Assembly (NCBI GenBank): GCA_000435635.1
Contig: FR882151.1
Span: 20,687 to 84,686 of the forward strand
Direction: 5' to 3'
DNA length: 64,000 nt
Source of the DNA: Prevotella sp. CAG:1320
Lineage (GTDB): Bacteria > Bacteroidota > Bacteroidia > Bacteroidales > Bacteroidaceae
Shown here: piece by piece, positions 13,280-56,068 of the stretch
How positions within the stretch are numbered: the first letter of the stretch is position 1
Layout: the number at the start of each line of letters is the position of its first letter
Program-made: the position numbers and the translations under genes
The notes under the pieces: model-generated
What the model saw: the letters and a program-made list of their open reading frames with translations, nothing else
Told to the model about the DNA's origin: nothing
The model's database searches: none

Positions 13280-13382
13280 AAGATAAGTTGTTTTGCCCAT
13301 CAAAACAACTTATCTTCAAAAGCAAAACAACTTGTTTTCCGAGACAATTCAAGTTGTTTTGATGAGCAAAACAACTTATTTC
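13280..13382. repeat. Tandem palindrome array A (5 units, 22-bp period)
   Basis: Five 15-bp units at 13280, 13302, 13324, 13346 and 13368, each followed by a 7-bp spacer. Unit 3, AAAACAACTTGTTTT, is a perfect odd palindrome with 7-bp arms. Unit 1 (AAGATAAGTTGTTTT) is not self-complementary on both arms but is the exact reverse complement of unit 2 (AAAACAACTTATCTT). Same palindrome family as arrays B and C. Lies 3' of the regulator gene and upstream of the operon promoter. Confidence 0.85.
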
Positions 13383-13783
13383 CTTAGCCGAAAAAGCGAA
13401 GGCGGAGCCAACAACTTTACGCTTGGCATGGATTGGGACAGAAGAAACACATGCACCAGCCCTATATATACATATTATATATATACGCGCGCGCGAATAG
13501 ATTAATCATCCATAGAAAGAAAACGCTATCCGCAAGCGACGCAACCAGCTGCGTGTTCCATGGCGCGATTTACGCAAAGCGCAGGGATAACGGGCCAGCA
13601 GAAAAACGGTGGGGCTATTCCAGGTTCAGTGGATTTTCAGTGGGGAATAATCAGTTCTTGCCTCGCGGTGCCCGGAATATGCGGAGGCGCTGTGGGCGAC
13701 GCGCATGGAAAAGAGGAAGAATGAATAAATAAATCTTGACAAAACCAGGATGGGGCTGGAGACGGCTTGGGCGCGAGGGAAAA

Positions 13784-13864
13784 CGCAACTAGTTACGTGG
13801 CCCCACGAAACTAGTTGCGATGGCCGGTGAAACTAGTTTCGTGACCCTTCGCAACTAGTTGCGT
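13784..13864. repeat. Tandem palindrome array G (4 units, 22-bp period)
   Basis: Four 15-bp units at 13784, 13806, 13828 and 13850 separated by 7-bp spacers. The core is ACTAGT with extended arms: CGCAACTAGTTGCG in unit 4, GAAACTAGTTTC in unit 3, mixed half-sites in units 1 and 2. It lies 181 bases beyond the stop codon of the regulator gene. Related in core sequence to array H. Confidence 0.85.
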
Positions 13865-14045
13865 TTCCCGCCGCCTGTACATGGGCTGTCTGGGGCTTTC
13901 GTTCCCGCAAGAGCGTGGAAGTAGGATTTTTTGACATTCTCCCGTGCGCCACTTGTCGCCACCTTGGCATCTCCTGTTACCCCATGATATTCCCACTGAG
14001 CAGGATAACGCCTGGAATCCAAGAGAAAAATCCCCTGGCGTTTCG

Positions 14046-16994
14046 CTACACTTTATAAGACGAGGGAGAGAAGCCGTATTCCTTGGTGAAACACCGCGTG
14101 AAATACTTCGGGTCATTAAAGCCCACGCGGTAGGCAATCTCGGAAACATGGCGGTTGGCGGTATTGTCTTCCAACATCTTCTTGGCCACGCTCAGTCGAT
14201 AGCTACGCATAAATTGGCTCACGGATGTTCCCGCCTCCGCATAGAGTTTCTTGTTGAGCGTAGCGCGGCTCATGTTCATGGCCGAGGCCAACTCCTGCAC
14301 GCCAAACTCCGAGTTGTCATAGTTGGCCTCCATCACTTTCATCAGCACTTCCATGAAAGGCTTGATTTTGCGGGCCACGTCTTTCCTGTCCTCCTCGGCG
14401 ATCTTGTCGCGGCTTTGGGTAAACAGTTTCTGGTTGTCCAGGATACTCTTGATGCGGAGTTGGAGTTTATCGGGTGCGTCACTCTCCATCAGCGCGGCTT
14501 GTATCGGGGTATAGAGCTTCTGCACTTCCCGTTGCCGTATTATCTCCAGCCTGCGTTTATAGAGATATGTTCCCAGGGCTATCAGCACCATGGCCAATAG
14601 CGTGAGGAACCACCAGCTCTTCCAGAAGTAGGGCGACACATGCACTCCGATGCTGGCATACTGCTCCTCGCCGCTGAGTCCGCAATTGTATTTCACTTCA
14701 AACTCGTAATCTCCCGAGGGCAAGGCAGTGTAGCGCACACTATGCTCACCCGAGGGCAATTGCGTCCATTCCTCTTCAAAGCCTTTCATGCGATAGCTGT
14801 AAGTGCCATGCATCTCTGAGCCATAGTTCAAGGCAGAGAAATCTATGGTAAACGAGCGATTGCTCTCCCCCAAGTTGACGCGCTTGGCGATGGAGATGTC
14901 CTGGTCCAAGTATTTCCCGGCATTCACCTCTTGGTTGTCCACGATCAATCGGGTAAAGGTAAGCTTTCCATGCCCTATCCCCTTGATGTCAATGCCCTTG
15001 ACTTCCGTGAGCCCTTGCTCTGAGCCCAGGTAAATAGTGCCATTGGGCGAGATGGCGGCACTGTTGTAATAAAACTGCGCGCAGGCCAATCCGTCATTTT
15101 CACCATAATTGGTGATGGCCCCCGTCTTGGTGTTGTACACAGAAAGACCGTTTTCGGTCGTTATCCAGAGCAGTCCCCTCTGGTCTGCCACGATACCTCT
15201 CACCATGTTATTGGCCAAGCCATGGTTGATTGTGATATTATGGAATCTCGGTTCACCGCCCTTTCCCCGTTCCATGCGGTAAAGGCCATAACCTCCGCTA
15301 CCCAGCCACAGGGTACCGTCAGCAGTCTGGCAAAAGGCCGTGATTTTCTCTTGCACGCCGCTTTTAGGGTCGTCCAGTTTCGTGCGGTAATGCTTCCAGT
15401 CGAATTTTCCCTTGATTTTGCGCTTCAGGTTGACTCTCACCACGCCCTCCAGGCATCCCATCCAAAGCTCACCGTCCTTGGTCACCAAGCTGCCTATGCA
15501 TCCTCTTATCTCCCTACAGCCCTCAAAGGGGTCCATCATCCGCCTGCCGCGGAAGTCGTAAAAGAAAAGACCGTCGTTGGTACCTATCCAAAGACCGTCG
15601 TTGATAGAATCGTAAGCCAAGGCACCCACAAAGCGAGTCAATCTGCGATAAGTCTCGTCCATGGCCAGGGGCGTAATCTCTCCCGGACGATTGAGCGGCA
15701 TATAGTTGACTCCTTGCGCCCACGTGCCTATCCATAACCCTCCTTTTTTATCGGCCGCCAAAGCCGCCACGCTGTTATGGGAAAGTCCGCTGTTCTGGGT
15801 AGTGTAATGGGTAAACAGCCCACTGCCAGGCTCCTTGCGATTGAGGCCGCCCTCTACGGTGCCCACCCACAGCGTGCCGTCAGGCTCCACGTACATGGCA
15901 TTCACGGCATTGCGGGAGAGGGAGCCAGGCTGGCTGTCTTGATGCGTATAGTTCACCAATTCCAACTGGCGGGGAGTAAGCTTCACGATGCCGCCCGACT
16001 CAGTGCCTACCCAGATCTGTCCGTGCTGGCAGAAAACGCAATTCACGAAGTTGCTGCTCAAGCGGTTTACGGGACTCAAGGTGTTCCATTGCGTAATATG
16101 CCCGCCATGCCTGACATCCAAAAGGGAGATTCCTCCCAAAGTGCCAACCATCAACCTGCCGTCAGGCGCGACGGCCAAGGTGCTGACAAAGCTGTGCAAC
16201 AACCCCGACGAAGCATCCCACCTGCGGCCGTCGCTGCAGAAAAGCCCCTCGTTGCTGGCAAACCACGTCTGTCCGCCAAAGCGCAATATGCAAGTGAGAA
16301 ACCTGCCCGTAGTCTCCGGGTAAAGAGAAGAGAGATTCCTGGCCAGCAGCTTTCCTCCGTGCGGTGTGATTTGCCATAGCTTGGAGTCATAATGAGTCCA
16401 CACGGAACCATCACCATTCACGTCGCAAAGCGCGATGTCGGGCGTATTGGAAGTCACGGGGCATTCCTCTATGCCCGTAATAACACCCTGCTCATCCATC
16501 AGCAGCCTGCGGATATATCGCTTGGTGGCTATCCAAAGCACGCCTTTGCTATCCAGGTAGTTCCTCATGCCTGGCTCGTTGAGGGCGCGCTCCAATCGCT
16601 GGCCCAGCTGAGGAGTCTTCGTGGGTGGGACAATTATCGTCATGGTGCGCAGGTCTATCACCTGGGTGCACTCATCGAAACTTACCCAAAGACGCTTATA
16701 CGGGTCTTCCACGACATTGCGGCAAGAGTTGCTACGCATGGAGAGACCTTGTCCTCCCGCGTACATATAGCGGTAGCCATAACCATCATAACGCGCCAGC
16801 CCGCCGCCCTGCGTGCAAATCCACACAAAGCCTTGGCTGTCTTCATAGATATCATCCACGAAGTTTGCGGGCAAACCCGTACTCATATCCAAGTAAGCCA
16901 AACTGTATTCCCCTATCGGCCTTGCCGTTGCCGAAACGGCCATGGTAAGCAAAGCCCACAACAGGCATCCTGTCCTGCGCGCGAAATTATTCAT
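14046..16994 (-). CDS. Membrane-bound sensor-regulator: beta-propeller, Y_Y_Y, transmembrane, AraC domain (no kinase)
   Basis: 982 residues from the ATG at 16994; the frame is open further upstream but only this start gives a signal peptide (CLLWALLTMAVSATA). Residues about 30-690 hold repeated two-component-regulator propeller motifs (LPANFVDDIYEDSQGFVWICTQGG, GTLWVGTVEGGLNR, GLLWITTENGLSVYN). A Y_Y_Y domain follows (about 712-790), one membrane span (about 792-811), about 85 charged residues likely to coil, and an AraC HTH domain (897-982, VSEIAYRVGFNDPKYFTRCF). Hybrid two-component regulators of this sensor type normally carry histidine kinase and receiver domains between span and HTH; both are missing here. 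It probably senses a periplasmic oligosaccharide and controls the SusC/SusD operon. -7 element TATATTTG at 17033-17026. Confidence 0.9.
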   Translation of the reverse strand: MNNFARRTGCLLWALLTMAVSATARPIGEYSLAYLDMSTGLPANFVDDIYEDSQGFVWICTQGGGLARYDGYGYRYMYAGGQGLSMRSNSCRNVVEDPYKRLWVSFDECTQVIDLRTMTIIVPPTKTPQLGQRLERALNEPGMRNYLDSKGVLWIATKRYIRRLLMDEQGVITGIEECPVTSNTPDIALCDVNGDGSVWTHYDSKLWQITPHGGKLLARNLSSLYPETTGRFLTCILRFGGQTWFASNEGLFCSDGRRWDASSGLLHSFVSTLAVAPDGRLMVGTLGGISLLDVRHGGHITQWNTLSPVNRLSSNFVNCVFCQHGQIWVGTESGGIVKLTPRQLELVNYTHQDSQPGSLSRNAVNAMYVEPDGTLWVGTVEGGLNRKEPGSGLFTHYTTQNSGLSHNSVAALAADKKGGLWIGTWAQGVNYMPLNRPGEITPLAMDETYRRLTRFVGALAYDSINDGLWIGTNDGLFFYDFRGRRMMDPFEGCREIRGCIGSLVTKDGELWMGCLEGVVRVNLKRKIKGKFDWKHYRTKLDDPKSGVQEKITAFCQTADGTLWLGSGGYGLYRMERGKGGEPRFHNITINHGLANNMVRGIVADQRGLLWITTENGLSVYNTKTGAITNYGENDGLACAQFYYNSAAISPNGTIYLGSEQGLTEVKGIDIKGIGHGKLTFTRLIVDNQEVNAGKYLDQDISIAKRVNLGESNRSFTIDFSALNYGSEMHGTYSYRMKGFEEEWTQLPSGEHSVRYTALPSGDYEFEVKYNCGLSGEEQYASIGVHVSPYFWKSWWFLTLLAMVLIALGTYLYKRRLEIIRQREVQKLYTPIQAALMESDAPDKLQLRIKSILDNQKLFTQSRDKIAEEDRKDVARKIKPFMEVLMKVMEANYDNSEFGVQELASAMNMSRATLNKKLYAEAGTSVSQFMRSYRLSVAKKMLEDNTANRHVSEIAYRVGFNDPKYFTRCFTKEYGFSPSSYKV

Positions 16995-17025
16995 ACACCC
17001 GTCCTTCCAATGTCTTTCACGAACG

Positions 17026-17125
17026 CAAATATACAAAAAAAATGTTACATGATAAACTCGCGCGCGAAAATTACCCATATTTTTTCGCCAAGGAATTTGT
17101 TTCCCGCGTTTTTTGCGTATATTCG
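17026..17125. promoter_or_regulatory. Divergent promoters of regulator (minus) and patatin gene (plus)
   Basis: Minus strand: -7 element TATATTTG at 17033-17026, 32 bases before the regulator start. Plus strand: TTTG at 17096-17099 and TATATTCG at 17118-17125, 18 bases apart, the spacing of the Bacteroidetes -33/-7 pair. Initiation near 17132 would make the ATG at 17133 almost leaderless, which favours a later start at 17145 or 17151 for the patatin gene. Confidence 0.5.
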
Positions 17126-17144
17126 CGTAAACATGCCCCCTGCC

Positions 17145-19232
17145 ATGAACATGACAAAGAAATACCTACTCACCATGACGGCCGCCTGGACGCTAGCCAT
17201 CATTCCTGCCCTGTCGGCCCCACGGATAACCGATAACCGCTCCATTTCCCATTCCGACACCCTGCGAAACCGTCCGCGGGTCGCCGTGGTATTGTCGGGG
17301 GGAGGGGCCAAAGGCATGGCACACATTGGCGTACTCAAGGTATTGGAACGGGCGGGTATTCCCGTGGACATTATCACTGGCACTTCCATGGGCTCCATTG
17401 TTGGCGCGCTCTATGCCGTAGGCTGGAACGCGGAAAGGCTGGATTCGCTCGTCAGGGGACAAGACTGGAGTTTTTTGCTCTCCGATCGGGACGATTATTA
17501 CTCGCAAAACCTGCTCAACCGTGACCGGCAAGCCACTTACTTTCTCTCCAAGGCCATCACGCTGCAGAAAGGAAAAGTGGGAAATGAGGCCGGAGGACTG
17601 GTAGAGGGAAAGAACCTGAAGAAGCTATTCACCCACCTGACGGCAGGCTACGCGGACTCCATGGACTTCCGACAGTTGCCCATCCCCTATGCTTGCGTGG
17701 CCACAGACATCGTGGACTACTCGGAATACGTATTCCACTCAGGCACACTGCCCGAGGCCATGCGCTCCAGCATGGCCATTCCCGCCGTGTTTACCCCTGT
17801 GCGCATCGGCCAGCACGTATTGGTGGACGGCGGACTGCGTAACAACTATCCCGCCGATATAGCCCGGGAAATGGGAGCGGACTACATCATCGGCTCCACG
17901 GTGCAAGCCCCCGAGCGTTCGGCTGAGGATTTGCTCACGGGCAGCGGCATACTGGGACATATCATTGACGTGAACTGCAAGAACAAGTTCGAGGAAAACA
18001 TCGCCATCACGGACGTGCCGATATGGACAAACACCAAAGGCTTCAGCGCGGCCAGTTTCAGCGAGGCAGCCATCGACAGCCTGATAAAACTGGGGGAGAA
18101 AGCCGCCATGGCCCATTGGGAAGAGCTTTTGGCGCTGAAACGAAAAATGGGACTTACCGAGGATTATTCCCCCTCCAGACCCACTTTGCGAGCGGAAGCC
18201 GCCCTGCCACTCGACTTCAGCGACGAGGCGGAAGAGGCCCGCCCCGCACATGACATCTTGCGGGGAAGCATCGCGCTACGTTTCGACAGCGAGGAAAAAG
18301 TGGCCGCGCAGCTCAACGGAGTCTACTCCTCGTCACGGAGACCCATAGACGCTGAGCTGACCATCAGGCTGGGGCAACGATTCGTGAGCACCGCTTCCGT
18401 CAGGTGGAAACCCAAGCGATTTGCCTTGTTGGGACTGACCTACAGCTATGAATACAATGATTTGGACATCCATGATGAGGGAATCCGCAGTTTCAGCTTC
18501 ACCTACAACCGCCACCACGCCCATCTAGGCATCATCGGGGCAAGCATCCGCAACCTGGCGTTCGACGCCAACATCGCATGGGACTATTATCATGTGGGGC
18601 GCTTGCTGGCCTCCGACCCATCCACAAGCGCACGCCCTTTCAAGGATGAACACTTCTTCAGCTATCACGCACAATTGCGTTACGACTCCGAAGACATGCC
18701 CGTATTCCCCTCCCGCGGAGCGAAATTCCAAGCGGAGTACGCCTACTTCACCGATGACTTCGCCTCCTACCAAGGGCATAGCGGCTTCAGTGAACTGAGA
18801 GGACATTGGCGCATGTCATTTCCCGTCAGCTCCAAGTTTACCATCAGGCCCATGGTGTACGGGCGTATGCTCTTTGGCGGCGAGATTCCTATAGTACGAA
18901 GCAACTGCCTTGGAGGCTATTGGTTCGGCCACTTGGTAGAGCAGCAGATGCCTTTCGCTGGCGTGGTGAGCCTTGAAGACATGCAACGCCATTTCTTGGC
19001 GGGAAGTGTCACGGGACAATTCCGCCTTTTCCGCAACCACTATGTGCTTGGCAACGCCTCTTTGGGCTTCCACTCCGAGAAACCAAGAGATTTGCTGAGC
19101 GAAAAACCATACATTGGCGGTGAACTGGCCTATTTCTATCACACGATGTTCGGCCCGCTGGGAGCCTCCGTGGGATACAGTAACTTGACTGACAAAGTGG
19201 CATTCTACGTCAACCTGGGCTTTGAGTTCTGA
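17145..19232 (+). CDS. Patatin-like phospholipase with outer-membrane barrel (PlpD-like)
   Basis: 695 residues from the ATG at 17145; 17133 and 17151 are alternatives. Signal peptide ends near ALSA. The patatin domain (about 45-290) has the oxyanion loop GGGAKG at 52-57, nucleophile Ser81 in GTSMG and catalytic Asp228 in VDGGLRNNYP. The C-terminal half (about 400-695) reads as an Omp85/BamA-like surface-antigen barrel (RYDSEDMPVFPSRGAKFQAEYAYF, ending VNLGFEF). A POTRA-like segment probably links them (RPAHDILRGSIALRF). Such proteins are known as type Vd autotransporter relatives; they hydrolyse phospholipid acyl esters. Single-gene unit reading away from the regulator. Confidence 0.9.
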   Translation: MNMTKKYLLTMTAAWTLAIIPALSAPRITDNRSISHSDTLRNRPRVAVVLSGGGAKGMAHIGVLKVLERAGIPVDIITGTSMGSIVGALYAVGWNAERLDSLVRGQDWSFLLSDRDDYYSQNLLNRDRQATYFLSKAITLQKGKVGNEAGGLVEGKNLKKLFTHLTAGYADSMDFRQLPIPYACVATDIVDYSEYVFHSGTLPEAMRSSMAIPAVFTPVRIGQHVLVDGGLRNNYPADIAREMGADYIIGSTVQAPERSAEDLLTGSGILGHIIDVNCKNKFEENIAITDVPIWTNTKGFSAASFSEAAIDSLIKLGEKAAMAHWEELLALKRKMGLTEDYSPSRPTLRAEAALPLDFSDEAEEARPAHDILRGSIALRFDSEEKVAAQLNGVYSSSRRPIDAELTIRLGQRFVSTASVRWKPKRFALLGLTYSYEYNDLDIHDEGIRSFSFTYNRHHAHLGIIGASIRNLAFDANIAWDYYHVGRLLASDPSTSARPFKDEHFFSYHAQLRYDSEDMPVFPSRGAKFQAEYAYFTDDFASYQGHSGFSELRGHWRMSFPVSSKFTIRPMVYGRMLFGGEIPIVRSNCLGGYWFGHLVEQQMPFAGVVSLEDMQRHFLAGSVTGQFRLFRNHYVLGNASLGFHSEKPRDLLSEKPYIGGELAYFYHTMFGPLGASVGYSNLTDKVAFYVNLGFEF

Positions 19233-19321
19233 CCCTCTGGTGCATCCTTCGCAAGACGGTTCTCTGGCACACCCGCAGGGGGCAAAGCCTTTCCTCCCTT
19301 CTAACACACACTAACTAAAAT

Positions 19322-19495
19322 CGGTTTAAAGCCTATCAAAGTCCTTTTAAGGCTATTATAAACCGCATTCCACGTCGTGAAATATGTATTCCACGTCGTG
19401 GAATAGCTGTTTCACGTCGTGGAATAGCTATTTCACGACGTGGAACAGATTTAAGAGTAGTACAACTTCAAGTTTATAGCAGTTTAAACCGATTT
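19322..19495. repeat. Inverted flanks around palindrome array E
   Basis: AAATCGGTTTAAA at 19318-19330 is repeated inverted as TTTAAACCGATTT at 19483-19495, bracketing array E. The left flank itself folds: CGGTTTAAAGCC near 19322 opposes GGCTATTATAAACCG ending at 19366. The whole 19318-19495 segment could form a large stem with the array in its loop. It follows the patatin gene by about 85 bases; it may be a terminator or a small non-autonomous element. Confidence 0.5.
19367..19447. repeat. Tandem palindrome array E (4 units, 21-bp period)
   Basis: Four 15-bp units beginning about 19369, 19390, 19411 and 19432 with 6-bp spacers TATGTA, TAGCTG, TAGCTA. Unit 2, TTCCACGTCGTGGAA, is a perfect odd palindrome. 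Unit 1 (TTCCACGTCGTGAAA) and unit 4 (TTTCACGACGTGGAA) are exact reverse complements although neither is self-palindromic. Located 3' of the patatin gene. Confidence 0.85.
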
Positions 19496-19554
19496 TATAT
19501 AGCGTGTGCTTGAGGGAATCCTAAAAGCCAAGGAATAATGTCATGGCAATACCA

Positions 19555-36141: not shown

Positions 36142-36295
36142 CTTCGTTGTCGTTGGTTCTCTGCCGCGAAGATAGACATTCTTTCCCACAAAGAGGTACC
36201 GGGACGGAAAAAACTCACCTTCCGCCCCAAGAATGGGTAAGGAGACCTGCGACCTAGGAACTGCAGAGGTGGGCATTCGTCCACGGCCAGGAGGA

Positions 36296-36383
36296 GAATC
36301 ATCTTAGTCTTTTCCAGGAATCATCTTACTCTATTCCCAGAATCATCTAAGACTATTCCTAGAATCATCTAAGATGATTCCCC
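36296..36383. repeat. Tandem palindrome array F (4 units, 22-bp period)
   Basis: Units begin at 36296, 36318, 36340 and 36362, all starting GAATCATCT. Unit 4, GAATCATCTAAGATGATTC, is a perfect 19-bp odd palindrome; units 1-3 keep the left arm and have degenerate right arms. The left 12 bases of unit 1 (GAATCATCTTAG) pair exactly with the right 12 of unit 4. The only array lying between two gene starts; the 19-bp size also matches a Fur box. Confidence 0.85.
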
Positions 36384-41524: not shown

Positions 41525-41723
41525 CCTGGGCGTAGGCGGGAAATGCCAAGATACCACCTCCCTGGCTTGTCAACTTGCGCACGCGGTCCCCGCGACATTC
41601 CCGCCGCCCTCGCTTTTCCGCCCTGCCAGCCAGGGAAACACACATAAGTAAATTGAATGATTCACATAAATGACTTGGCCGATCCACTTACGTGGATCGG
41701 CCAATGTTATCTATATTCATTTC

Positions 41724-41826
41724 AAGACAACTTGATTTGCTCATGAAAACAACTTGTTTTCCTTGCGAAAATAACTTGTTTTCATGGGCAAAATAACTTA
41801 AATTGAAAAACAAATCAACTTGATTT
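41724..41826. repeat. Tandem palindrome array B (5 units, 22-bp period)
   Basis: Five 15-bp units at 41724, 41746, 41768, 41790 and 41812 with exact 7-bp spacers. Unit 2 is AAAACAACTTGTTTT, identical to unit 3 of array A. Unit 5 (AAATCAACTTGATTT) is also a perfect odd palindrome with changed arms, the change matched on both sides. Lies about 200 bases 3' of glf. Confidence 0.85.
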
Positions 41827-41849
41827 CCTTTACCCCCTCTATCCAACCC

Positions 41850-41903
41850 AAGACATTCCAATTCTTTCCGCTTCTCGCAAAATGGAAAGAAACGGAATGT
41901 CTT
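41850..41903. terminator. Long interrupted hairpin 3' of glf
   Basis: Arms AAGACATTCC/GGAATGTCTT (10 bp) and TTCTTTCC/GGAAAGAA (8 bp) separated by a 2x2 internal loop, 14-base terminal loop, followed on the plus strand by ATTTCTTGTTAT. Could terminate a long glf transcript or be part of an RNA; direction is not certain. Confidence 0.45.
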
Positions 41904-42022
41904 ATTTCTTGTTATCTGGCAAATGCGCCTTTCCGCCACCGGAAGCACATCCCAGCCAACGGAGAAGATAAGGGAGAAAAAGGTATTATTATTGCTTGCG
42001 GAGAGAAACTCTAGTATCTCCC

Positions 42023-42108
42023 CAGTACCAACTAAGTGAAACTGCAGTACCAGCATAAGTGGTACTGGAGTACCAACTAGCTGGTACTGGGGTTGAAGTA
42101 GTACTGCA
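42023..42108. repeat. Tandem palindrome array D (4 imperfect units, ~23-bp period)
   Basis: Repeated inverted half-sites AGTACCA and TGGTACT; palindrome centres fall near 42033, 42056, 42079 and 42102. Best unit: AGTACCAACTAGCTGGTACT (42070-42089), near-perfect. Looser than the other arrays but with the same spacing and unit number. Lies between convergent genes, 70% of the way from glf to cysS. Confidence 0.65.
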
Positions 42109-42445
42109 TTTCAAGAGGAATAGCATCGTGCTCTGGTTACAATGAAACTTGAGATCGAAGAATTACAATATCTGAAAATGGCACTTCCGCTTCCAAGACA
42201 CAGCGCATTCTTGCGTTTCGGCAAGCCAAGCAGCGTAACAAAACAACTTGTGAAAATGGGAACAAGGACATAAAACAAGCATATTCTTCCAAGATTATCA
42301 TTATTTTACACGATTTCCAGGAAAAATTAATAATTTTGCAAACAACGCATTCAAAACGGCAAAATCGTCAATGTGAATAAAGGCGAGTGGGACAAAGGTA
42401 GAACCACAGATTCTGTAAATGCGTTCAAAAAGTGCGAGACAAGAA

Positions 42446-44581: not shown

Positions 44582-46006
44582 ATGAGAAATAAGCTTCAGG
44601 TTTTCATCCTGTTGATTTCAATGGCATGGATAGCTAGCTCCTGCCTGGATGACAACGAATACGAATATGAATACCCCAACGACACTGCCATCACGGCTTT
44701 CTCGCTGGGCACAGTGGATAGATATGTGCACACCCTTTCCTCAAAAGGCGAAGACAGCGTCTACACGGAAGACGTGGACGGCAGCGAATACAAGTTCTAC
44801 ATTGACCAGGTAAAAAAGATAATCTACAACCCAGACTCCTTGCCTAAAGGCTGTGACGCCACACGCATATTGGCTACCATCAGTTCCAAGAACAGCGGAG
44901 TCATCGGCATCAAGGACACGAAGAGTGACTCCATCGCCGCCTATTCCAGCAGTGACTCCATAGACTTCTCCGTACCACGGGAGATAAGAGCCTACAACGT
45001 GATAGGCACCGCCTACTCCGCCTATACCGTCACCGTGAATGTACACAAGGAAGACCCAGACTCCTTTGGCTGGCATACCTTGGCGCAAAACAACGCTGAG
45101 TTGGCGGCATTAGCCCAGGCAAAAGCCGTGAGCGTGAACGAGCGGATATATTTGTTTGGCATAGATGCCACGAACAACTTGCACATCTATGCCACAAACA
45201 TCACGGACGGAGTGGAATGGGAAGAAGTAACGCCCGATGTTTCCCTCTCCCCTAACGCCTGCCAAAATGCCATCAGCTTTAACGGCTACATTTATACTTT
45301 GACCAATGGCATGAATACTTTGACCAATGACATGACAGGCACCAACTTGATGCGTTCCGTTGACGCCAAGACTTGGGAAACCGTAAAGACCGCCACCGGG
45401 CTCACTTGTTTGGCCGGGGCCAGTTCCCGCTACCTATATGCCTTGACACCCACGGGCATCTCCGTGTCGAAAGACGAGGGGTTCACCTGGGAGGCCGAGC
45501 CAATAGATACAGACGCCACATTCCTGCCCAGCGCGGAGATAAGCTTAGCCTATACGGAGAACTTGGTGAACGAGGAAACGGAGCACCTGTTGCTTATGGG
45601 AAGGCCAGCCGCCAGCGCAGGACAAGAATCCTCCACGGTATGGACCAAGGTGCAAGAATACGCGGAAGGTTCGGAAAACCAACCTTGGAGCTACGTGGTC
45701 TATGACCGAGGCGACAAATTCAAGGCTCCTTATGGCCGCCAGTTCTTGGCCACGGCCTATAGAGGTGGCTTTGAGGCACTACATTGCGACTCCGACAGCC
45801 TGTTGGTGTCCATGGACAAAGGCATCACTTGGCGCAAAGACTCAGTGGGTCTGCCCACGGGCTTCAATGGCGCACGTAACTTCGCTTTCGTCAAGGACGA
45901 ACAGAACTACCTGTGGATTATCAACATAGACGGAGTGGGAAGCGCCTGGAAAGGCCGCCACAATTCCGAGGGATGGATTAAAGAGGAGACCGCCTTCGAG
46001 AACTGA
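44582..46006 (+). CDS. DUF6242-type exported lipoprotein
   Basis: 474 residues. Lipobox ASSC near residue 21, followed by LDDNEYEYEYPND, an acidic start that suggests surface or outer-membrane lipidation. N-terminal Ig-like region (to about 150) then kelch/BNR-like propeller segments (ISFNGYIYTLTNGM, RSVDAKTWETV, VSKDEGFTWEAEP, VSMDKGITWRKDS). Matches what I know as DUF6242, found beside DUF6089, uppS and bamA in Bacteroidales. Function unknown; context suggests envelope assembly. First gene of a ten-gene rightward operon. Confidence 0.78.
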   Translation: MRNKLQVFILLISMAWIASSCLDDNEYEYEYPNDTAITAFSLGTVDRYVHTLSSKGEDSVYTEDVDGSEYKFYIDQVKKIIYNPDSLPKGCDATRILATISSKNSGVIGIKDTKSDSIAAYSSSDSIDFSVPREIRAYNVIGTAYSAYTVTVNVHKEDPDSFGWHTLAQNNAELAALAQAKAVSVNERIYLFGIDATNNLHIYATNITDGVEWEEVTPDVSLSPNACQNAISFNGYIYTLTNGMNTLTNDMTGTNLMRSVDAKTWETVKTATGLTCLAGASSRYLYALTPTGISVSKDEGFTWEAEPIDTDATFLPSAEISLAYTENLVNEETEHLLLMGRPAASAGQESSTVWTKVQEYAEGSENQPWSYVVYDRGDKFKAPYGRQFLATAYRGGFEALHCDSDSLLVSMDKGITWRKDSVGLPTGFNGARNFAFVKDEQNYLWIINIDGVGSAWKGRHNSEGWIKEETAFEN

Positions 46007-50650: not shown

Positions 50651-50658
50651 TATATTTG
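50651..50658 (+). promoter_or_regulatory. Internal promoter element TATATTTG
   Basis: Lies in the 78-base gap between skp copies 1 and 2, 68 bases before the copy 2 ATG; suggests copies 2 and 3 can be transcribed separately. Confidence 0.45.
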
Positions 50659-50725
50659 CAGCGGTTATAATTCCCTTAGAGGAATGCCCTGACAGTAATC
50701 AAATCATTAAAACCATAAACAAGAA

Positions 50726-51217: not shown

Positions 51218-51221
51218 TGGC

Positions 51222-51728
51222 ATGATGAGAAAAGCCATCCTCACGCTATCTATAATGCTGCTGCCGCTCCTAGCTAGCGCGCAGCAGCTTCGTTTTGGTT
51301 ACTTCAGTTATCAAGAGGTTTTCAAGTCCATGGCGGGCTATTCCATCGCCATGAAACATATCGATGACCTCAAGAAACAATATGACGCGGAAATGAAGCG
51401 GGTCGAGGAGGAATTCAACAAGAAATACGAGGAGTTCCTCGATGGGCAAAAAGATTTCGCCCCCTCCATCCGCGAGAAACGACAGGCAGAGCTACAAGAA
51501 ATGATGGAAAAGAACATCGCCTTCAAGCAGGAGGCCAGAAGACTCATCAAGCAGGCCGAGGAGGAGGCCTTGGCCCCGCTGAAGGAGAAACTCAACGCCA
51601 CGCTCACGGCCGTGGGAAAGGAGAAGGGCTACGCCTTCATCTTCAACACCGACAACAACTCCCTGCCCTACGTCAATGAACTCATGGGCGAAAACATCAA
51701 CGCCCTGCTCACGGAGAAACTGAAATGA
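51222..51728 (+). CDS. OmpH/Skp-family periplasmic chaperone (copy 3)
   Basis: 168 residues; start may be one codon later at 51225. Signal peptide ends LLASAQQ, then RFGYFSYQEVFKSMAGYSIAMKHIDDLKKQYDAEM and a charged coiled coil (about 55-125), ending KGYAFIFNTDNNSLPYVNE. Starts 4 bases after copy 2 and overlaps murI by 4 bases. Most divergent of the three. Confidence 0.9.
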   Translation: MMRKAILTLSIMLLPLLASAQQLRFGYFSYQEVFKSMAGYSIAMKHIDDLKKQYDAEMKRVEEEFNKKYEEFLDGQKDFAPSIREKRQAELQEMMEKNIAFKQEARRLIKQAEEEALAPLKEKLNATLTAVGKEKGYAFIFNTDNNSLPYVNELMGENINALLTEKLK

Positions 51729-52570
51729 CATTACCGTCAGCGCCAGGCCCTATAGGTGTCTTCGACTCCGGATATGGCGGACTGACCATTTTGCATGGTA
51801 TTCGCCAGTTGTTGCCCCAATATGATTATATCTACTTGGGCGACAATGCCCGCGCCCCTTATGGTAGCCGTTCTTTCGACATCGTGTATCGTTTTACCCG
51901 CCAAGCCGTCATCAAGTTGTTTGATATGGGGTGCCACTTGGTGATATTGGGATGCAATACCGCGTCGGCCAAGGCCTTGCGCTCTATCCAGCAAAGAGAC
52001 TTGCCCCAGCTAGACCCCAACCGCCGGGTGCTGGGAGTGATTAGGCCTACGGCAGAGGTGATAGGCCAACTCACCACGACACGCCACGTAGGCCTGCTCG
52101 CCACGGAGGGAACCGTGAAAAGCCACAGCTATGAGCTGGAGATAGGCAAGTTTTGGCCAGATATAAAAGTAAGTGGCGTAGCGTGCCCGTTTTGGGTGCC
52201 GCTGGTGGAATACAATGAGGCCGACAGCCCTGGGGCGGATTATTTCGTAAAGAAGCGCATCGACGAGCTGATGCGCCTAGACCCGGACATCGACGCGATG
52301 ATATTGGGATGCACCCACTACCCGCTCCTGATGCCGAAGATATTGAAATACGCACAGCCTGGCGTACGGGTGGTAGCGCAAGGAGACTATGTGGCGGAAA
52401 GCCTCAAAGACTACCTGAAGCGTCACAAAGAAATAGACGACAAATGCTCCAGAGGAGGGCAATGCACCTATTACACCACCGAGAATCCCGAGAAGTTCAA
52501 GGAGTGCGCCCGCGTTTTCCTGCGTGAGGACGTGCTCGTAAGCCAACTAGACCTAACAAATATACAGTGA
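51725..52570 (+). CDS. murI: Glutamate racemase
   Basis: 281 residues. GVFDSGYGGLTILHGI near 12-27, DNARAPYGSR, and the two catalytic cysteines in VILGCNTASA (about 80) and MILGCTHYPLLMP (about 196). Makes D-glutamate for peptidoglycan. Overlaps skp copy 3 by 4 bases; rbfA follows after 4 bases. Confidence 0.96.
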   Translation: MTLPSAPGPIGVFDSGYGGLTILHGIRQLLPQYDYIYLGDNARAPYGSRSFDIVYRFTRQAVIKLFDMGCHLVILGCNTASAKALRSIQQRDLPQLDPNRRVLGVIRPTAEVIGQLTTTRHVGLLATEGTVKSHSYELEIGKFWPDIKVSGVACPFWVPLVEYNEADSPGADYFVKKRIDELMRLDPDIDAMILGCTHYPLLMPKILKYAQPGVRVVAQGDYVAESLKDYLKRHKEIDDKCSRGGQCTYYTTENPEKFKECARVFLREDVLVSQLDLTNIQ

Positions 52571-52574
52571 CACC

Positions 52575-52910
52575 ATGCAAGAAACCAGACAAAACCGCAT
52601 AGCGAGGCTGCTGCAAAAAGAGCTCGCGTTGATATTCCAGTCACAAACACGCATGACCCACGGGGTAATGGTAAGCGTTACCCGCGCCCGTGTCAGTCCA
52701 GACCTGAGCATTTGCACCGCCTACCTGAGCATTTTCCCCTCGGAGAAAAGCGAGGAGATACTTACCAACATCAAGGCCAACGAGAAATCCATCCGCTACG
52801 AGCTGGGTACCAAGGTGCGCAATCAATTGAGGATAATCCCCGAGTTGCGTTTCTTCCTCGACGACAGTCTCGACTACCTGGAGCATATCGATGAGTTGCT
52901 GAAGAAATAA
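52575..52910 (+). CDS. rbfA: Ribosome-binding factor A
   Basis: 111 residues. ETRQNRIARLLQKELALIFQ start, VSVTRARVSPDLSICTAYLSIFPSEKSEEIL and RNQLRIIPELRFFLDDSLDYLEHIDELL, the KH-like RbfA fold. Helps 30S maturation. Followed by the FtsX-like gene after 3 bases. Confidence 0.95.
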   Translation: MQETRQNRIARLLQKELALIFQSQTRMTHGVMVSVTRARVSPDLSICTAYLSIFPSEKSEEILTNIKANEKSIRYELGTKVRNQLRIIPELRFFLDDSLDYLEHIDELLKK

Positions 52911-52913
52911 GCA

Positions 52914-54143
52914 ATGAATTTCCCCCTCTTCGTCGCCCGCCGCTACCTCTTCTCCCGCAAGAGCACCCATGCCATCAACGTGATAAGCGCCATCTCCGTC
53001 ATAGGTGTGGCGGTAGCTACGATGGCCTTGGTCATCGTGCTCAGCGTTTTCAATGGCTTCCATGACTTGGTGGCTTCACTCTTCACCAACTTTGACCCGC
53101 AACTGGAAGTTGTCCCCACCAAGGGAAAGACGGCCGCCAGCAACGACCCCATACTTACTCAAATAAGGCAACTGCCACAGGTGGACGTAGCCACGGAGAG
53201 CGTGGAAGACCAAGCGTTGGCCGTTTACCACGACAAACAAGCGATGGTTACCGTGAAGGGAGTAGAGGACAACTTCGCGGAACTTTCCCATATCAACGAA
53301 ATCCTATATGGCGACGGTGAGTTCTCACTTCATGCCGCCAACCTGCAATATGGCACTCCCGGACTGCAACTGGCCTACAACCTGGGGCTAAGCGCAGCGT
53401 GGGAGGGCAATCTCTATATCTTCGCCCCAAAGCGGGAAGGCCAACTGGACATGGCTAACCCCACGCAAGGCTTCGTGGTAGACTCGCTCATCACGTCGGG
53501 CGTGGTATTCAACGTGAAGCAAGCGAAATATGACCGCGACTATATCCTCACCTCCATCTCCTTCGCCCGCAACCTCTTCGACCTGCAAGGCCGCCTTACC
53601 TCCTTGGAATTGAGGCTTAAACCAGGAAGCGACCTAGACGCGGTGAAAGCGGAAATGCAATCCATTGCGGGGGACAAGTTCCGCGTGATGGATCGCTTCG
53701 AGCAGCAAGAAGACACCTTCCGCATCATGTCCATCGAAAAGCTGATGGCCTACATCTTCCTCACTTTCATCCTGGTGGTGGCCTGCTTCAACATCGTAGG
53801 CTCCCTCTCCATGCTCATCATCGACAAGAAAGACGACGTGGTAACGCTCCGCAACCTGGGAGCCAGCGACCACCAGATAGTGCGCGTGTTCCTCTTCGAA
53901 GGCAGGATGATATCCGCCATGGGAGCCGTCATTGGCGTAGCCCTTGGCCTGCTGCTCTGCTGGCTGCAGCAAGAGTTCGGCTTCGTGTCACTGGGCGAGA
54001 GCGAGGGCACCTTCATCATCAACGCCTATCCCGTAAGCGTTCACTATACCGACGTACTCCTTGTCTTCCTCACGGTCATCGCCGTGGGATGGCTCTCCGT
54101 TTGGTATCCCGTGCGGTATCTCAGCAAGCGCTTGCTGGACTAG
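52914..54143 (+). CDS. FtsX-like ABC permease (LolC/LolE-type)
   Basis: 409 residues. N-terminal FVARRYLFSRKSTHAINVISAISVIGVAVATMALVIVLSVFNGF contains the first span; a large periplasmic domain (about 50-265) precedes three C-terminal spans (LMAYIFLTFILVVACFNIVGSLSMLI, GRMISAMGAVIGVALGLLLCWL, TDVLLVFLTVIAVGWLSVWYPV). The KDDVVTLRNLGASDHQIVRVFLFEG coupling segment is typical. Likely extracts lipoproteins from the inner membrane with an ATPase encoded elsewhere. Last gene of the envelope operon. Confidence 0.92.
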   Translation: MNFPLFVARRYLFSRKSTHAINVISAISVIGVAVATMALVIVLSVFNGFHDLVASLFTNFDPQLEVVPTKGKTAASNDPILTQIRQLPQVDVATESVEDQALAVYHDKQAMVTVKGVEDNFAELSHINEILYGDGEFSLHAANLQYGTPGLQLAYNLGLSAAWEGNLYIFAPKREGQLDMANPTQGFVVDSLITSGVVFNVKQAKYDRDYILTSISFARNLFDLQGRLTSLELRLKPGSDLDAVKAEMQSIAGDKFRVMDRFEQQEDTFRIMSIEKLMAYIFLTFILVVACFNIVGSLSMLIIDKKDDVVTLRNLGASDHQIVRVFLFEGRMISAMGAVIGVALGLLLCWLQQEFGFVSLGESEGTFIINAYPVSVHYTDVLLVFLTVIAVGWLSVWYPVRYLSKRLLD

Positions 54144-54178
54144 TCCTTTACGTAACCCTTTCAAACCCATCTCCTTAC

Positions 54179-54259
54179 AAAACAAGTTATTTTGCCCACG
54201 AAAACAAGTTGTTTTCCTTGGCAAATCAAGTTGTTTTCCTTGGCAAAATAACTTGTTTT
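54179..54259. repeat. Tandem palindrome array C (4 units, 22-bp period)
   Basis: Four 15-bp units at 54179, 54201, 54223 and 54245 with 7-bp spacers (GCCCACG, CCTTGGC, CCTTGGC). Unit 2, AAAACAAGTTGTTTT, is perfectly palindromic. Unit 1 (AAAACAAGTTATTTT) and unit 4 (AAAATAACTTGTTTT) are exact reverse complements. Begins 36 bases after the permease stop. Confidence 0.87.
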
Positions 54260-54424
54260 CAAATTGAGCTCGCCATTCCTCCGCACGTAAGATAGAGTCT
54301 TCCCTCTTGACCCCATGAAAAAATCCCCGTGAGATCAAGGCAAATGACAAGAAAATTCAATACAATACATCATTTTTCGACAACCACGCAAAAAGATTTC
54401 ACCTATATTTTGTATCTTCGCGGC

Positions 54425-54700
54425 AGAACAAGACTAAACAGATATAAAGCCACGAAGAAACCCTAGCGGTATGTTACGTAACGTGCACATAACATCATGG
54501 TCTTTTGCCCAAAGCTTTCGACGCCTTGAGCGAAGTAGTCATGTGTATGCGTTTAGCGCTTCATGTACTGCCGACATGGGATTTCCCCGACCTCACACGC
54601 ATAGTTAATTCCCTTTGGGCAATTCAGATAAAACCCATTGGAAGTATAAGTAAGCACGATGTAGTTGGAAGTTCCTTGCCGGAAAAATCCAACTATTTTT
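54425..54700 (+). ncRNA. Candidate structured RNA ending in a terminator hairpin
   Basis: A -7-like TATCTTCG lies just upstream. TTGCCCAAAG (54505-54514) pairs with CTTTGGGCAA (54613-54622), enclosing 98 bases with an inner hairpin AGTA..CATG/CATGTACT (54534-54569) capped by GCG/CGC and a small GGG/CCC hairpin. A second hairpin TAGTTGGA/TCCAACTA (54662-54669 with 54687-54694) is followed by six T. Closing stem, open internal bubble and apical hairpin recall 6S-like RNAs, but I cannot confirm this; it may instead be a leader controlling the gene at 54724. Confidence 0.35.
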
Positions 54701-54723
54701 TATGCTTAAAAGAGGAAAACACT

Positions 54724-55134
54724 ATGCCTGCGAACAAAAACGCCCTGATAAGATATAGAACCATAGACAATTGCCTGAGAAACAGGTACAGAAGATGGAC
54801 ACTTGACGACCTTGTGCAAGCCTGCTGTGACGCACTCTACGACATGGAGGGCATCAAAAAAGGCGTGTGCGCCAGAACCGTACAGATGGACATGCAAATC
54901 ATGAGGTCTGAAAAGCTGGGCTACAATGCCCCCATCGAAGTATATGACAAGATATATTATAGATATGCCGACCCTGATTACTCTATCTCAGATATGCCTT
55001 TGTCTATAGAGGATTGCAAACTGCTGAAAAAAGCCATCACCTTATTGTCGGAAAACAACAGGGAAAAGACCGAGACTATCGAAGTGCTGGAAAAGGTAAA
55101 AGCAAGGCTAAGGTCCATCCTTAGCTACGTGTAA
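54724..55134 (+). CDS. Short HTH protein related to the N-terminus of WYL-domain regulators
   Basis: 136 residues from the ATG at 54724. ALIRYRTIDNCLRNRYRRWTLDDLVQACCDALYDMEGIKKGVCARTVQMDMQIMRSEKLGYNAPIEVYDKIYYRYADPDYSI closely follows the N-terminal winged-helix part of Bacteroidales WYL regulators, which are usually about 300-350 residues. Here the chain stops after a short helix (CKLLKKAITLLSENN.. to LSYV) without WYL domain. Either a naturally short regulator or a remnant. The terminator-like hairpin just upstream could attenuate it. Confidence 0.7.
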   Translation: MPANKNALIRYRTIDNCLRNRYRRWTLDDLVQACCDALYDMEGIKKGVCARTVQMDMQIMRSEKLGYNAPIEVYDKIYYRYADPDYSISDMPLSIEDCKLLKKAITLLSENNREKTETIEVLEKVKARLRSILSYV

Positions 55135-55368
55135 TCCCATTCCCGTAACGCTACGCTGGCGAGAAGCCTGCGTGAAGTTGGTAGAGGAATGGGCATTCAT
55201 CGTACGCATATATAATAATGTCCACGTGCGCATACAAAAAGGTGCATCGTGTTCCCTCTTGCCCAACTCGTTCTAATAGATTGATTGGGGAGGTAAAACC
55301 GAATCGATCATTAGACTGCAAAAGGTTTCGTTTCCACTGAAAGGGGAAATCATAAAAGATTCCATAAG

Positions 55369-55441
55369 CGGAGCCTCGTGGAGTCGAACCACGTTGTCGG
55401 GATTTTCAGTCCCGCGCATACACCAAGTCTGCCAAAGCTCC
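55369..55441 (-). tRNA. tRNA-Phe (GAA)
   Basis: Acceptor GGAGCTT pairs with AGGCTCC; anticodon stem CGGGA/TCCCG with loop CTGAAAA, anticodon GAA; T arm CGTGG/CCACG with TTCGACT loop. The discriminator appears to be G rather than the usual A. CCA not encoded. Part of a three-tRNA cluster. Confidence 0.9.
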
Positions 55442-55448
55442 TTGCAAG

Positions 55449-55523
55449 TGATGAGGGCGGGAGGCGAACCCGCAACCTGATGCTTCGTAGGCACCCGCTC
55501 TTGTTCCATTGAGCTACCCCACC
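55449..55523 (-). tRNA. tRNA-Arg (ACG)
   Basis: Acceptor GGTGGGG pairs with CCTCATC (two G-U pairs); anticodon stem GGTGC/GCATC with loop CTACGAA, anticodon ACG (A34 would become inosine); T arm GCGGG/CCCGC. Discriminator A. Seven bases from tRNA-Phe. Confidence 0.92.
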
Positions 55524-55531
55524 AGGATAGC

Positions 55532-55617
55532 GGAAGCAGAAGGATTCGAACCTTCGAGACCTTTCACGGTCTAGCACGTTAGCGGTGTGCTGGTTTCAAC
55601 CACTCACCCATACTTCC
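55532..55617 (-). tRNA. tRNA-Ser (GCT) with C at position 33
   Basis: 86 bases, class II. Acceptor GGAAGTA/TGCTTCC, D stem GGT/ACC, variable arm GACC/GGTC, T arm GAAGG/CCTTC with TTCGAAT. The anticodon loop reads CCGCTAA, so anticodon GCT is preceded by C instead of the near-universal U33, and the top anticodon-stem pair is A-C. All other arms are intact. Confidence 0.85.
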
Positions 55618-55749
55618 TTTGTTTTGACATCGCGAAGATAGAAAGGGTGAGCGCAACCTTTTTTCGTAGCACGAAAAATTTTATAAAATCGCTTTGGATT
55701 ATAGGTCTTTTTTGCTAAATTCGTGGAAAAATCAATGAAAGGGTGCGGC

Positions 55750-56040
55750 ATGAATATACTAAAACCGATTATCATTTGCCTTGTGCTTGTAGCTTTAGAA
55801 CCCATAACGCTATATGCCCAAGAGAATATTGCCAAGGGACAGGCTGGCTATCTCTCCATTCACGACAAGACCAAAGGATTGAAACTGGGGGGCAAGGCAC
55901 AAGTACGACCTCTACAGGCGGCGATGGTATACGGTGCCCATACGGATGCCGGCACCCGCGGGCAGGCCACTAAGACCCATGAGAAGATGATACTAGTCTC
56001 GAAGGGCTACGAAACTAGTTTCATTGACCTTCGAGACTAG
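55750..56040 (+). CDS. Small exported hypothetical protein
   Basis: 96 residues from the ATG at 55750 (an earlier ATG at 55723 is possible). A signal peptide is clear: ILKPIIICLVLVALEPITLYAQ. The mature part, ENIAKGQAGYLSIHDKTKGLKLGGKAQVRPLQAAM, matches no family I know. The last 18 codons run into palindrome array H, so the natural C-terminus may have been lost when the array arose, or the gene is a remnant. The codon use before the array looks like ordinary coding sequence, but confidence is limited. Confidence 0.4.
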   Translation: MNILKPIIICLVLVALEPITLYAQENIAKGQAGYLSIHDKTKGLKLGGKAQVRPLQAAMVYGAHTDAGTRGQATKTHEKMILVSKGYETSFIDLRD

Positions 56041-56068
56041 TATCGCAGCCCTTCGAGACTAATATCCT
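55988..56068. repeat. Tandem palindrome array H (4 units, 22-bp period)
   Basis: Four 15-bp units at 55988, 56010, 56032 and 56054 with spacers AGGGCTA, TGACCTT, AGCCCTT. Core ACTAGT as in array G. Unit 2 has the perfect palindrome GAAACTAGTTTC. Unit 1 (GATACTAGTCTC core) and unit 3 (GAGACTAGTATC) are exact reverse complements. Ends 14 bases before the M28 peptidase stop codon on the opposite strand. Confidence 0.85.

What the first reader, a model, noticed from the sequence alone, without database searches (positions are those of the whole stretch)
13280..56068. A dispersed family of tandem palindrome arrays with a shared 21-23 bp geometry
Eight intergenic arrays (A 13280, G 13784, E 19369, F 36296, B 41724, D 42023, C 54179, H 55988) each hold four or five palindromic units of about 15 bp separated by 6-7 bp, so unit centres repeat every 21-23 bp, about two helical turns. 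The sequences differ between arrays (AAAACAACTTGTTTT in A, B, C; ACTAGT cores in G and H; TTCCACGTCGTGGAA in E; GAATCATCTAAGATGATTC in F; AGTACCA/TGGTACT in D), yet spacing and unit number are kept. Conserved geometry with changing sequence suggests a structural or pairing function rather than one fixed protein site. All arrays are outside recognised genes and all but F lie beyond at least one gene's 3' end. I know of no described element with this form.
Basis: seen in the sequence. Interest (0 to 1): 0.82.

Follow-up and report, generated by a model that had tools for sequence, protein, structure and literature searches.

The report
Helix-phased palindrome arrays in Bacteroidales
Between the genes of bacteria related to Prevotella and Bacteroides lie short rows of mirror-image DNA repeats whose letters differ between species while their spacing stays at 21 or 22 bases, which hints at a job tied to DNA shape rather than to one fixed sequence.

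Summary
The eight arrays are there. A, B, C and G are clear runs of palindromes in exact 22-bp steps, E in 21-bp steps; H is good, D and F weak. Random sequence of like composition gives almost none. The pattern reaches beyond the window: in 81 Bacteroidales loci and in samples of four genomes, intergenic tandem repeats of period 22 far exceed neighbouring periods. 53 of 80 such arrays have palindromic units (4 expected; 34 of 58 without one genome rich in a single family). That genome has 255 exact copies of its unit; a loosened spaced pair is absent from 119 genomes of its genus. The region beside one homologous gene in Bacteroides relatives holds arrays of different sequence. Arm changes are compensated (68 versus 35 expected) without G·T preference, so the symmetry looks DNA-level. 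Arrays are mildly enriched between convergent genes and, clearly in one genome and weakly in three, avoid lying close together; the window does not. The REP, BrickBuilt and Rfam tests made were not met; MITE-like arms flank some arrays only. Best reading: helically phased DNA-topology or nucleoprotein elements, working like E. coli BIMEs but held to geometry more than sequence. Function is inferred. Sequence-blind tandem duplication without host function is a serious rival.

The parts
13280..13382 (.). Array A: five 15-bp units (family AAAACAACTTGTTTT) with 7-bp spacers, 22-bp steps
   Evidence: permutation p 0.0033
13784..13864 (.). Array G: four 14-bp units (CGMRACTAGTYKCG) with 8-bp spacers, 22-bp steps
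   Evidence: p 0.0033
19368..19446 (.). Array E: four 15-bp units (TTCCACGWCGTGGAA) with 6-bp spacers, 21-bp steps
   Evidence: p 0.0033; same unit and period 21 in three other genomes
19297..19330 (+). left outer arm of the larger inverted repeat round array E
   Evidence: 34 nt, 82% complementary to 19483-19516
19483..19516 (+). right outer arm of the larger inverted repeat round array E
36295..36382 (.). Array F: four 22-bp direct repeats, only the last a full palindrome (GAATCATCTAAGATGATTC)
   Evidence: palindromy of the array as a whole not significant
41724..41826 (.). Array B: five units of family AAAACAACTTGTTTT, 22-bp steps
   Evidence: p 0.0033
42023..42108 (.). Array D: AGTACCA/TGGTACT units, two complete, 22.5-bp steps
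   Evidence: not in the permutation test
54179..54260 (.). Array C: four units of family AAAACAAGTTGTTTT, 22-bp steps
   Evidence: p 0.0166
55988..56067 (.). Array H: four 14-bp ACTAGT-centred units (last decayed), 22-23.5-bp steps; the whole array is also a 34-nt-arm inverted repeat
   Evidence: not in the permutation test

Best explanation
SHOWN: these are members of a class of intergenic elements found in Prevotellaceae and Bacteroides genomes. Each is a run of about 3 to 20 short units, most of them palindromic, placed two helical turns apart (21 or 22 bp). A genome holds several unit families; some are dispersed to a few or to more than a hundred places, some were seen once in what was sampled, and families differ between species. 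INFERRED mechanism: they work as double-stranded DNA platforms. Each palindrome is a two-fold symmetric site for a dimeric or junction-recognising nucleoid protein, or a short cruciform that takes up negative supercoiling. The 22-bp register puts every site on the same face of the helix, so bound subunits stack into one cooperative complex. The arrays would act as BIME-like topology or domain elements spread along the chromosome at roughly 15-30 kb, more often where convergent genes meet. Because geometry matters more than letters, sequences turn over fast by local tandem duplication and occasional dispersal of a successful unit. The protein is not identified.
For: Period 22 stands alone: 29 intergenic arrays at lag 22 (1 coding), 13 at lag 21, 3 at lag 23, 0-4 at each of lags 24-40 in 81 loci. 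Pooled deep samples give 84 at lag 22, 15 at 21, 0 at 23. Palindromy: 53 of 80 period-22 arrays at p<0.05; 19 of 22 in G001, 34 of 58 elsewhere. Compensatory double changes 68 against 35.5 (sd 4.3, maximum 48 in 200 shuffles), and without G001 62 against 32.2 (maximum 43). On the presumed sense strand G·T 34 against A·C 42, without G001 28 against 37: no RNA wobble preference. Register: one composite array in G003 changes palindrome family in exact 22-bp register on one side (44, 44) and is off by 2.5 bp on the other; two other composite arrays gave no clear measure. The Bacteroides unit, searched with free gaps, gives 73 of 75 listed forward-strand places at exactly 22 and 2 at 21. Turnover: different arrays beside the same gene in Bacteroides relatives. 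Spacing: G001 32 intervals, mean 16.9 kb, CV 0.40 against 1.11 simulated (0 of 2000 as low), 1 interval under 5 kb against 13.1 expected. G328, with about six unit families by eye in 11 arrays, CV 0.51 against 1.01, p 0.007. Convergent regions 16 against 7.1 expected, divergent 19 against 27.1. A BIME impedes supercoil diffusion in E. coli (passage of PMC6907758).
Against: No protein, binding or transcript data. Regular spacing is strong only in G001. Under a stricter null (one array per intergenic region) it is p 0.04 for the CV in G328, where intervals under 7 kb are not depleted (1 against 1.4); in G005 and G003 intervals under 7 kb are depleted at p 0.02 and 0.10 but the CV is not low (p 0.82, 0.34). 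The 41-bp class of G005 is not regularly spaced (CV 0.97). The window contradicts it: A-G 0.5 kb, B-D 0.3 kb, C-H 1.8 kb apart. 27 of 80 period-22 arrays are not significantly palindromic. Compensated changes could come from mutational correction of quasi-palindromes (recalled) instead of selection, and units of one array share ancestry. Arrays come and go between genomes 86-92% alike in the flanking gene. E. coli topological barriers are reported as placed at random (passage of PMC6907758).
Confidence: 0.38

Rival explanations
1. Ruler-driven minisatellites without host function: a replication or repair process (for example hairpin nicking and fill-in at a fixed distance, or strand slippage over an extruded palindrome) duplicates local palindromes in steps of about 22 bp. 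Palindromy is kept by templated correction, and arrays arise and vanish neutrally in non-coding DNA.
For: Array sequences differ beside the same gene between related genomes. Occurrence rises with intergenic length: 2 of 217 regions of 100-200 bp, 14 of 39 of 600-900 bp. No position-conserved slot: 12 of 71 upstream of the homologue of window 44582-46006. A second fixed period, 41 bp, exists in H. marshii.
Against: A neutral process does not explain over-dispersion in G001, convergent enrichment, or 255 dispersed copies of one unit in G001. No such 22-bp ruler is known to me in other bacteria; 20 of the 148 other Bacteroidia genomes, sampled at up to 20 kb each (340 kb), had one lag-22 row, a heptamer artefact, and 50 kb of E. 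coli had none.
Confidence: 0.3
2. Non-autonomous mobile palindromes (REP- or MITE-like) moved by an unidentified transposase, with target immunity giving the spacing.
For: 255 exact copies of one unit in G001, none in 7 other genomes, and a loosened 22-bp-spaced pair in 0 of 119 other genomes of its genus. Array E has outer inverted arms. The L069 Bacteroides array lies between inverted arms of 126 nt, 83% complementary, in a stretch that recurs in G008 and relatives.
Against: Of 44 G001 array ends, none shows a conserved flank beyond about 10 nt, except two neighbours on C10 that share their flank and look like a local duplication. Y1 transposase PF01797 is found in 5 of 8 genomes, and the only G001 match has no copy of the palindrome in its 2,989-bp locus. 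Spacing is also somewhat regular between different families in G328, which family-specific immunity would not give.
Confidence: 0.18
3. Operator arrays of several different dimeric regulators, each family being the site of its own protein.
For: The E unit recurs in other species at its own period 21. The spaced GAAAC pair is found in 9 of 60 Bacteroides-genus genomes. Units recur within a genome: by eye about 10 of 16 arrays in the G005 sample and 8 of 11 in G328 share a unit with another array. Tandem palindromic operators are known, for example MetJ (recalled).
Against: About 6 of 16 arrays in G005 and 3 of 11 in G328 have a unit seen once in the 400 kb sampled (by eye). No shared neighbouring gene among the E-family loci. 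Arrays do not prefer promoters; divergent regions are depleted.
Confidence: 0.08
4. RNA-level hairpins: tandem intrinsic terminators or mRNA 3'-end stabilisers.
For: Most window arrays lie beyond a gene 3' end; mild convergent enrichment; T-rich outer ends in many G001 arrays.
Against: No G·T over A·C preference on the presumed sense strand (34 against 42). 19 of 84 arrays lie between divergent genes. No Rfam match in what was scanned.
Confidence: 0.06

Closest known systems
BIME / REP elements (E. coli and other bacteria)
   Same: Dispersed extragenic palindromes in clusters, often beyond gene 3' ends, species-specific, high copy; BIMEs are candidate supercoil barriers (passage of PMC6907758)
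   Different: Most REPs fall into GTAG- or CGTC-tagged sequence families, GTAG ones often near RAYT transposase genes (abstract and passages of PMC3733652). Here units of many sequences keep a fixed 21/22-bp step, no constant tag stands at the unit foot, and no RAYT link was seen in G001
BrickBuilt minisatellite-MITE of Porphyromonas gingivalis
   Same: Intergenic, dispersed tandem repeats of 23 nt in a Bacteroidales genome (PMC4596501: abstract, parts 1-2 of 9 and section 8)
   Different: One sequence family with leader, tail and small terminal inverted repeats; no match to its consensus in the window (up to 3 mismatches) or exactly in 298 loci
PINSR, the 188-bp Prevotella intermedia group repeat
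   Same: 177 and 184 intergenic copies in two strains, no terminal inverted repeats, lineage-specific (PMC4755523: abstract and passages)
   Different: Described as one 188-bp sequence; whether it is itself a 22-bp array could not be tested because the consensus is in a figure
Replication-initiator iterons (phage lambda O sites, Rep_3 plasmid iterons; recalled)
   Same: Several palindromic or direct sites about 22 bp apart, on one helix face
   Different: One origin with its own initiator gene; here many chromosomal arrays. No match for the G001 and A/B/C pairs in viral contigs, array C in plasmids, or array A in phages; other families were not searched there

Membership tests
REP/BIME | short extragenic palindromes in high copy | tested here: met
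   G001: 255 exact copies; 22-bp arrays counted in intergenic DNA
REP/BIME | GTAG or CGTC tag at one end of the palindrome | tested here: not met
   G001: GTAG or its complement in 13 of 61 spacers, so not a constant tag; CGTC only inside the loop. Other units read by eye. Definition
REP/BIME | linked RAYT (Y1_Tnp) gene flanked by the palindrome | tested here: not met
   PF01797 in 5 of 8 genomes; the G001 match lacks the palindrome in its 2,989-bp locus. Flanks of the other 8 matches were not checked
BrickBuilt | 23-nt consensus AGAYCATARTATCCTCTCRTRTG | tested here: not met
   window, up to 3 mismatches; 298 loci, exact only
MITE | terminal inverted repeats round each copy | tested here: inconclusive
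   absent at 44 G001 array ends; present round array E and the L069 array
MITE | target-site duplication | tested here: inconclusive
   no clean filled/empty pair found
Intrinsic terminator / RNA hairpin | RNA-type pairing (G-U tolerated) and placement after genes | tested here: not met
   G·T 34 against A·C 42; 19 of 84 in divergent regions
Known structured RNA | Rfam covariance-model match | tested here: not met
   window only tRNAs; 16 Bacteroides loci nothing at a gathering score except tRNA; 140 kb of G003/G001 none
Iteron array | two-helical-turn spacing of several sites | tested here: met
Iteron array | adjacent initiator gene or origin | not tested
   no gene-by-gene search was made
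PINSR | 188-bp consensus | not testable with these tools
   consensus only in a figure

The most novel reading that the evidence does not exclude
A class of bacterial chromosome element defined by geometry instead of sequence: palindromes set every 21-22 bp (and every 41 bp in one species), in arrays placed at domain-scale distances, that one structure-recognising protein or supercoil-driven extrusion reads regardless of letters, so each species writes the same signal with different words.
Probability: 0.2. Interest if true: 0.92.

Novelty: new variant of a known kind. Interest (0 to 1): 0.66.

Why it matters
If the inference holds, Prevotella and Bacteroides have an undescribed, abundant chromosome element whose information is largely spacing and symmetry. 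That would give a direct handle on how these bacteria organise or insulate their DNA, and it would explain why homology searches miss it, since families differ between species. It also makes a testable question of whether symmetry is kept by selection or by mutation.

Tried and rejected
REP/RAYT: not supported for G001. BrickBuilt: consensus not found. FopS small-RNA family of Bacteroides: different in kind (passages of PMC11697453). Phage or plasmid origin and iteron decoys: no match for the two families tried. Position-conserved slot upstream of the homologue of window 44582-46006: 12 of 71, in line with intergenic length. Shared neighbour gene as a driver for the E family: none. Complementary spacers as a general rule: only window A of 13 arrays at p<0.05. 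Clean insertion junction in Bacteroides: not found. Window A/B/C unit as a spaced pair in 16 near relatives: 0 of 16. A strict E-type pair: 2 of 299 genomes. H. marshii unit pair: 1 of 149 class genomes, H. marshii itself. The inverted-repeat step inside the script printed nothing for all 21 sequences and probably failed; the repeat finder later showed 126-nt arms at L069. One paper search asking for all five terms returned nothing.

Rows dropped before counts: coding arrays; overlapping lags of one array; one search kept 87 of 112 arrays (at least 62% paired arms; numbers before and after); one search kept 13 arrays with at least four good units; spacing tests used lags 22/44 plus the G001 core, so window E, D and H were not in them; the L001-L080 loci all come from one locus (uppS), so they are not a random genome sample, and 30 of the 81 sequences held a 21-23- or 43/44-lag array. 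G001 stretches were chosen from contigs known to hold copies. Gene names (uppS and others) are recalled from sequence unless a Pfam call is cited; genes were called by a home-made codon model. Unit families and 'different sequence' were judged by eye.

Full report
WHAT IS IN THE WINDOW. The window is a Bacteroidales (Prevotellaceae-like) chromosome piece: its UppS-like protein (name recalled) is 74-79% identical to the best 15 loci, all Prevotellaceae. All eight arrays exist. TRF finds seven, and a sequence-blind palindrome-chain scan finds A, B, C, E and G far above 40 Markov controls. Steps are exactly 22 bp in A, G, B and C and 21 bp in E. A, B and C share one unit (13 matches, 0.11 expected); G and H share another (7 of 8 matches lie in them). 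F is mainly a direct repeat and D is half decayed. Array E has outer inverted arms. As single strands all eight fold better than 200 shuffles each (z -4.2 to -11.1), and A, E and H, the three looked at, are long fold-backs as wholes.

NOT A CURIOSITY OF ONE WINDOW. I compared tandem-repeat periods in 81 sequences (80 loci and the window; 1.40 Mb, 213 kb intergenic by a home-made codon-model gene caller). Lag 22 gives 29 intergenic and 1 coding array; lag 21 gives 13, lag 23 gives 3, lags 24-40 give 0-4 each. Raised short periods (14, 16, 9) are a separate matter. In deep samples of four genomes plus the window the pooled counts are 84 at lag 22, 15 at 21, 0 at 23 and 2 at 20. A column-permutation test finds palindromic units in 53 of 80 period-22 arrays at p<0.05, 3 of 15 at period 21 and 1 of 2 at period 23. 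G001, mostly one family, gives 19 of 22; the rest 34 of 58. Twenty of the 148 other Bacteroidia genomes handled, up to 20 kb each (340 kb), gave one lag-22 row, a heptamer artefact, and 50 kb of E. coli gave none. So the class seems concentrated in Prevotellaceae and Bacteroides; the controls are small.

SEQUENCE TURNOVER, GEOMETRY KEPT. In G001 (Prevotella sp. RGIG10252, 4.0 Mb) TTTGGTTCGTCCAAAC occurs 133 + 122 times, the reversed-pattern control 0 times, and 7 other genomes have none. A 22-bp-spaced pair with the loop freed hits only G001 among 120 genomes of its genus. G003 has several unit families and composite arrays; one of three switches family in exact register on one side and is off by 2.5 bp on the other, the other two gave no clear measure. 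H. marshii (G005) has several families at 22 bp, some recurring and about 6 of 16 arrays with a unit seen once in 400 kb (by eye), and a second class of 18 arrays with period 41 in a smaller number of unit families, several shared by two arrays. In Bacteroides a spaced GAAACYNNRGTTTC pair is found in 9 of 60 genomes; with gaps left free, 73 of the 75 forward-strand places listed are at 22 bp and 2 at 21 (more matches existed than were listed, and pairs of one array are not independent). The region upstream of the gene next to the L069 array, in 19 other genomes (up to 1,100 bp looked at, 419 in one; the gene on the far side was checked only in G308), holds arrays in five (G296 and G343 alike, G328, G331, G341), giving four sequences unlike each other and unlike L069, and none in 14. 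The E unit recurs at period 21 in G280, G229 and G346, with one half-like case in G250, at unrelated places; one further G229 match, L293, centres on a different 22-bp array. The window's A/B/C pair was not found in 16 near relatives, though G003 has a unit of like shape (AAATTAACTTAATTT).

WHAT THE ANATOMY SAYS ABOUT MECHANISM. Arm positions that change in one unit tend to be compensated: 68 double changes against 35.5 (sd 4.3) in shuffles, and 62 against 32.2 without G001. Related units share ancestry, and templated correction of quasi-palindromes (recalled) could do the same, so this shows that symmetry is maintained, not why. Mismatches on the presumed sense strand show no G·T excess (34 against 42 A·C; 28 against 37 without G001). 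That speaks for DNA-level symmetry. Placement: 16 arrays between convergent genes against 7.1 expected, 19 divergent against 27.1, 49 tandem against 49.8; the 41-bp class has 8 of 18 convergent against 2.9. Most of 44 G001 array ends run into unrelated DNA within about 10 nt, many T-rich outwards; two neighbours on C10 share a flank. Array E and the L069 array, in contrast, sit between longer inverted arms. No Rfam family fits in what was scanned.

SPACING ALONG THE CHROMOSOME. In G001 the 32 intervals average 16.9 kb with CV 0.40; the same number placed at random in intergenic space gives 1.11, and none of 2000 simulations was as low. A null with at most one array per intergenic region gives 0.86, again with none as low. 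Other genomes are weaker. G328 has CV 0.51 (p 0.007; 0.04 under the stricter null) but no depletion of short intervals under that null. G005 has 0 of 15 intervals under 7 kb (4.2 expected, p 0.0045; 0.02) but no low CV. G003 has 0 of 10 (2.6 expected, p 0.035; 0.10) and no low CV. Three L loci with two arrays say nothing either way. The window goes against it: three pairs of different-family arrays lie 0.3-1.8 kb apart. Other-period arrays in G001 and G003 (CV 0.97 and 2.24) and the 41-bp class of G005 (0.97) are not over-dispersed.

INTERPRETATION. The two-turn register, kept symmetry, lack of RNA signature, intergenic and mildly convergent placement and, in G001, domain-scale spacing fit best with DNA platforms for a nucleoid or topology function, in the way proposed for BIMEs (passage of PMC6907758). 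The steps not shown are that anything binds, that topology changes, and that cells care. The strongest rival is a sequence-blind duplication process with a 22-bp ruler and no function; fast turnover and dependence on intergenic length fit it well. Mobility by an unknown transposase with target immunity could explain G001 alone.

RELATION TO WHAT IS KNOWN. Works like: BIMEs. Member of: no tested family. A constant REP tag and a RAYT link were tested in G001 and not met (definition from passages). The BrickBuilt consensus was not found. MITE ends are absent in G001 but arms exist round E and L069. PINSR could not be tested. Searches of the open-access library listed no description of fixed-period palindrome arrays in Bacteroidales; the lists were cut (20 of 47 and 15 of 939 papers shown) and subscription papers are not held, so this is not proof of absence in print. 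Lambda O and Rep_3 iterons, MetJ operators and quasi-palindrome correction are cited from recall.

Noticed in passing
G005 (Hoylesella marshii) C1:1-400000, L130-L149: A second class of 18 tandem arrays with period 41 bp, mostly palindromic by eye, in a smaller number of unit families, some shared by two arrays.
   Followed up: partly
L069:19283-19819 and copies in L224-L243: In Bacteroides the L069 GAAAC array sits between 126-nt inverted arms rich in TGTCAC/GTGACA; the stretch recurs in the genome and in related species.
   Followed up: partly
L027, L041, L049, L050, L056 and Bacteroidia samples (e.g. L171): Heptamer-type repeats (periods 7, 14, 21, 28, 35) such as AGTTAAG occur in intergenic DNA and are a separate phenomenon.
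   Followed up: no
window 55723-56040: A 105-aa ORF with a signal-peptide-like start runs into array H; no Pfam match, so it may be a truncated or spurious gene.
   Followed up: partly
window A (13280-13382), B (41724-41826), H (55988-56067): Spacers as well as units are partly reverse-complementary (A GCCCATC/GATGAGC, B GCTCATG/CATGGGC, H), helping to make the whole array a long fold-back; not general among the 13 arrays tested.
   Followed up: yes
window 13300-13900, 41700-42110, 54180-56070: Each A/B/C-family array has an array of another family within 0.3-1.8 kb (A with G, B with D, C with H).
   Followed up: no
G001 C10 near 13.7 and 15.1 kb (L115): Two neighbouring arrays share their left flank, which looks like a local segmental duplication.
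   Followed up: no
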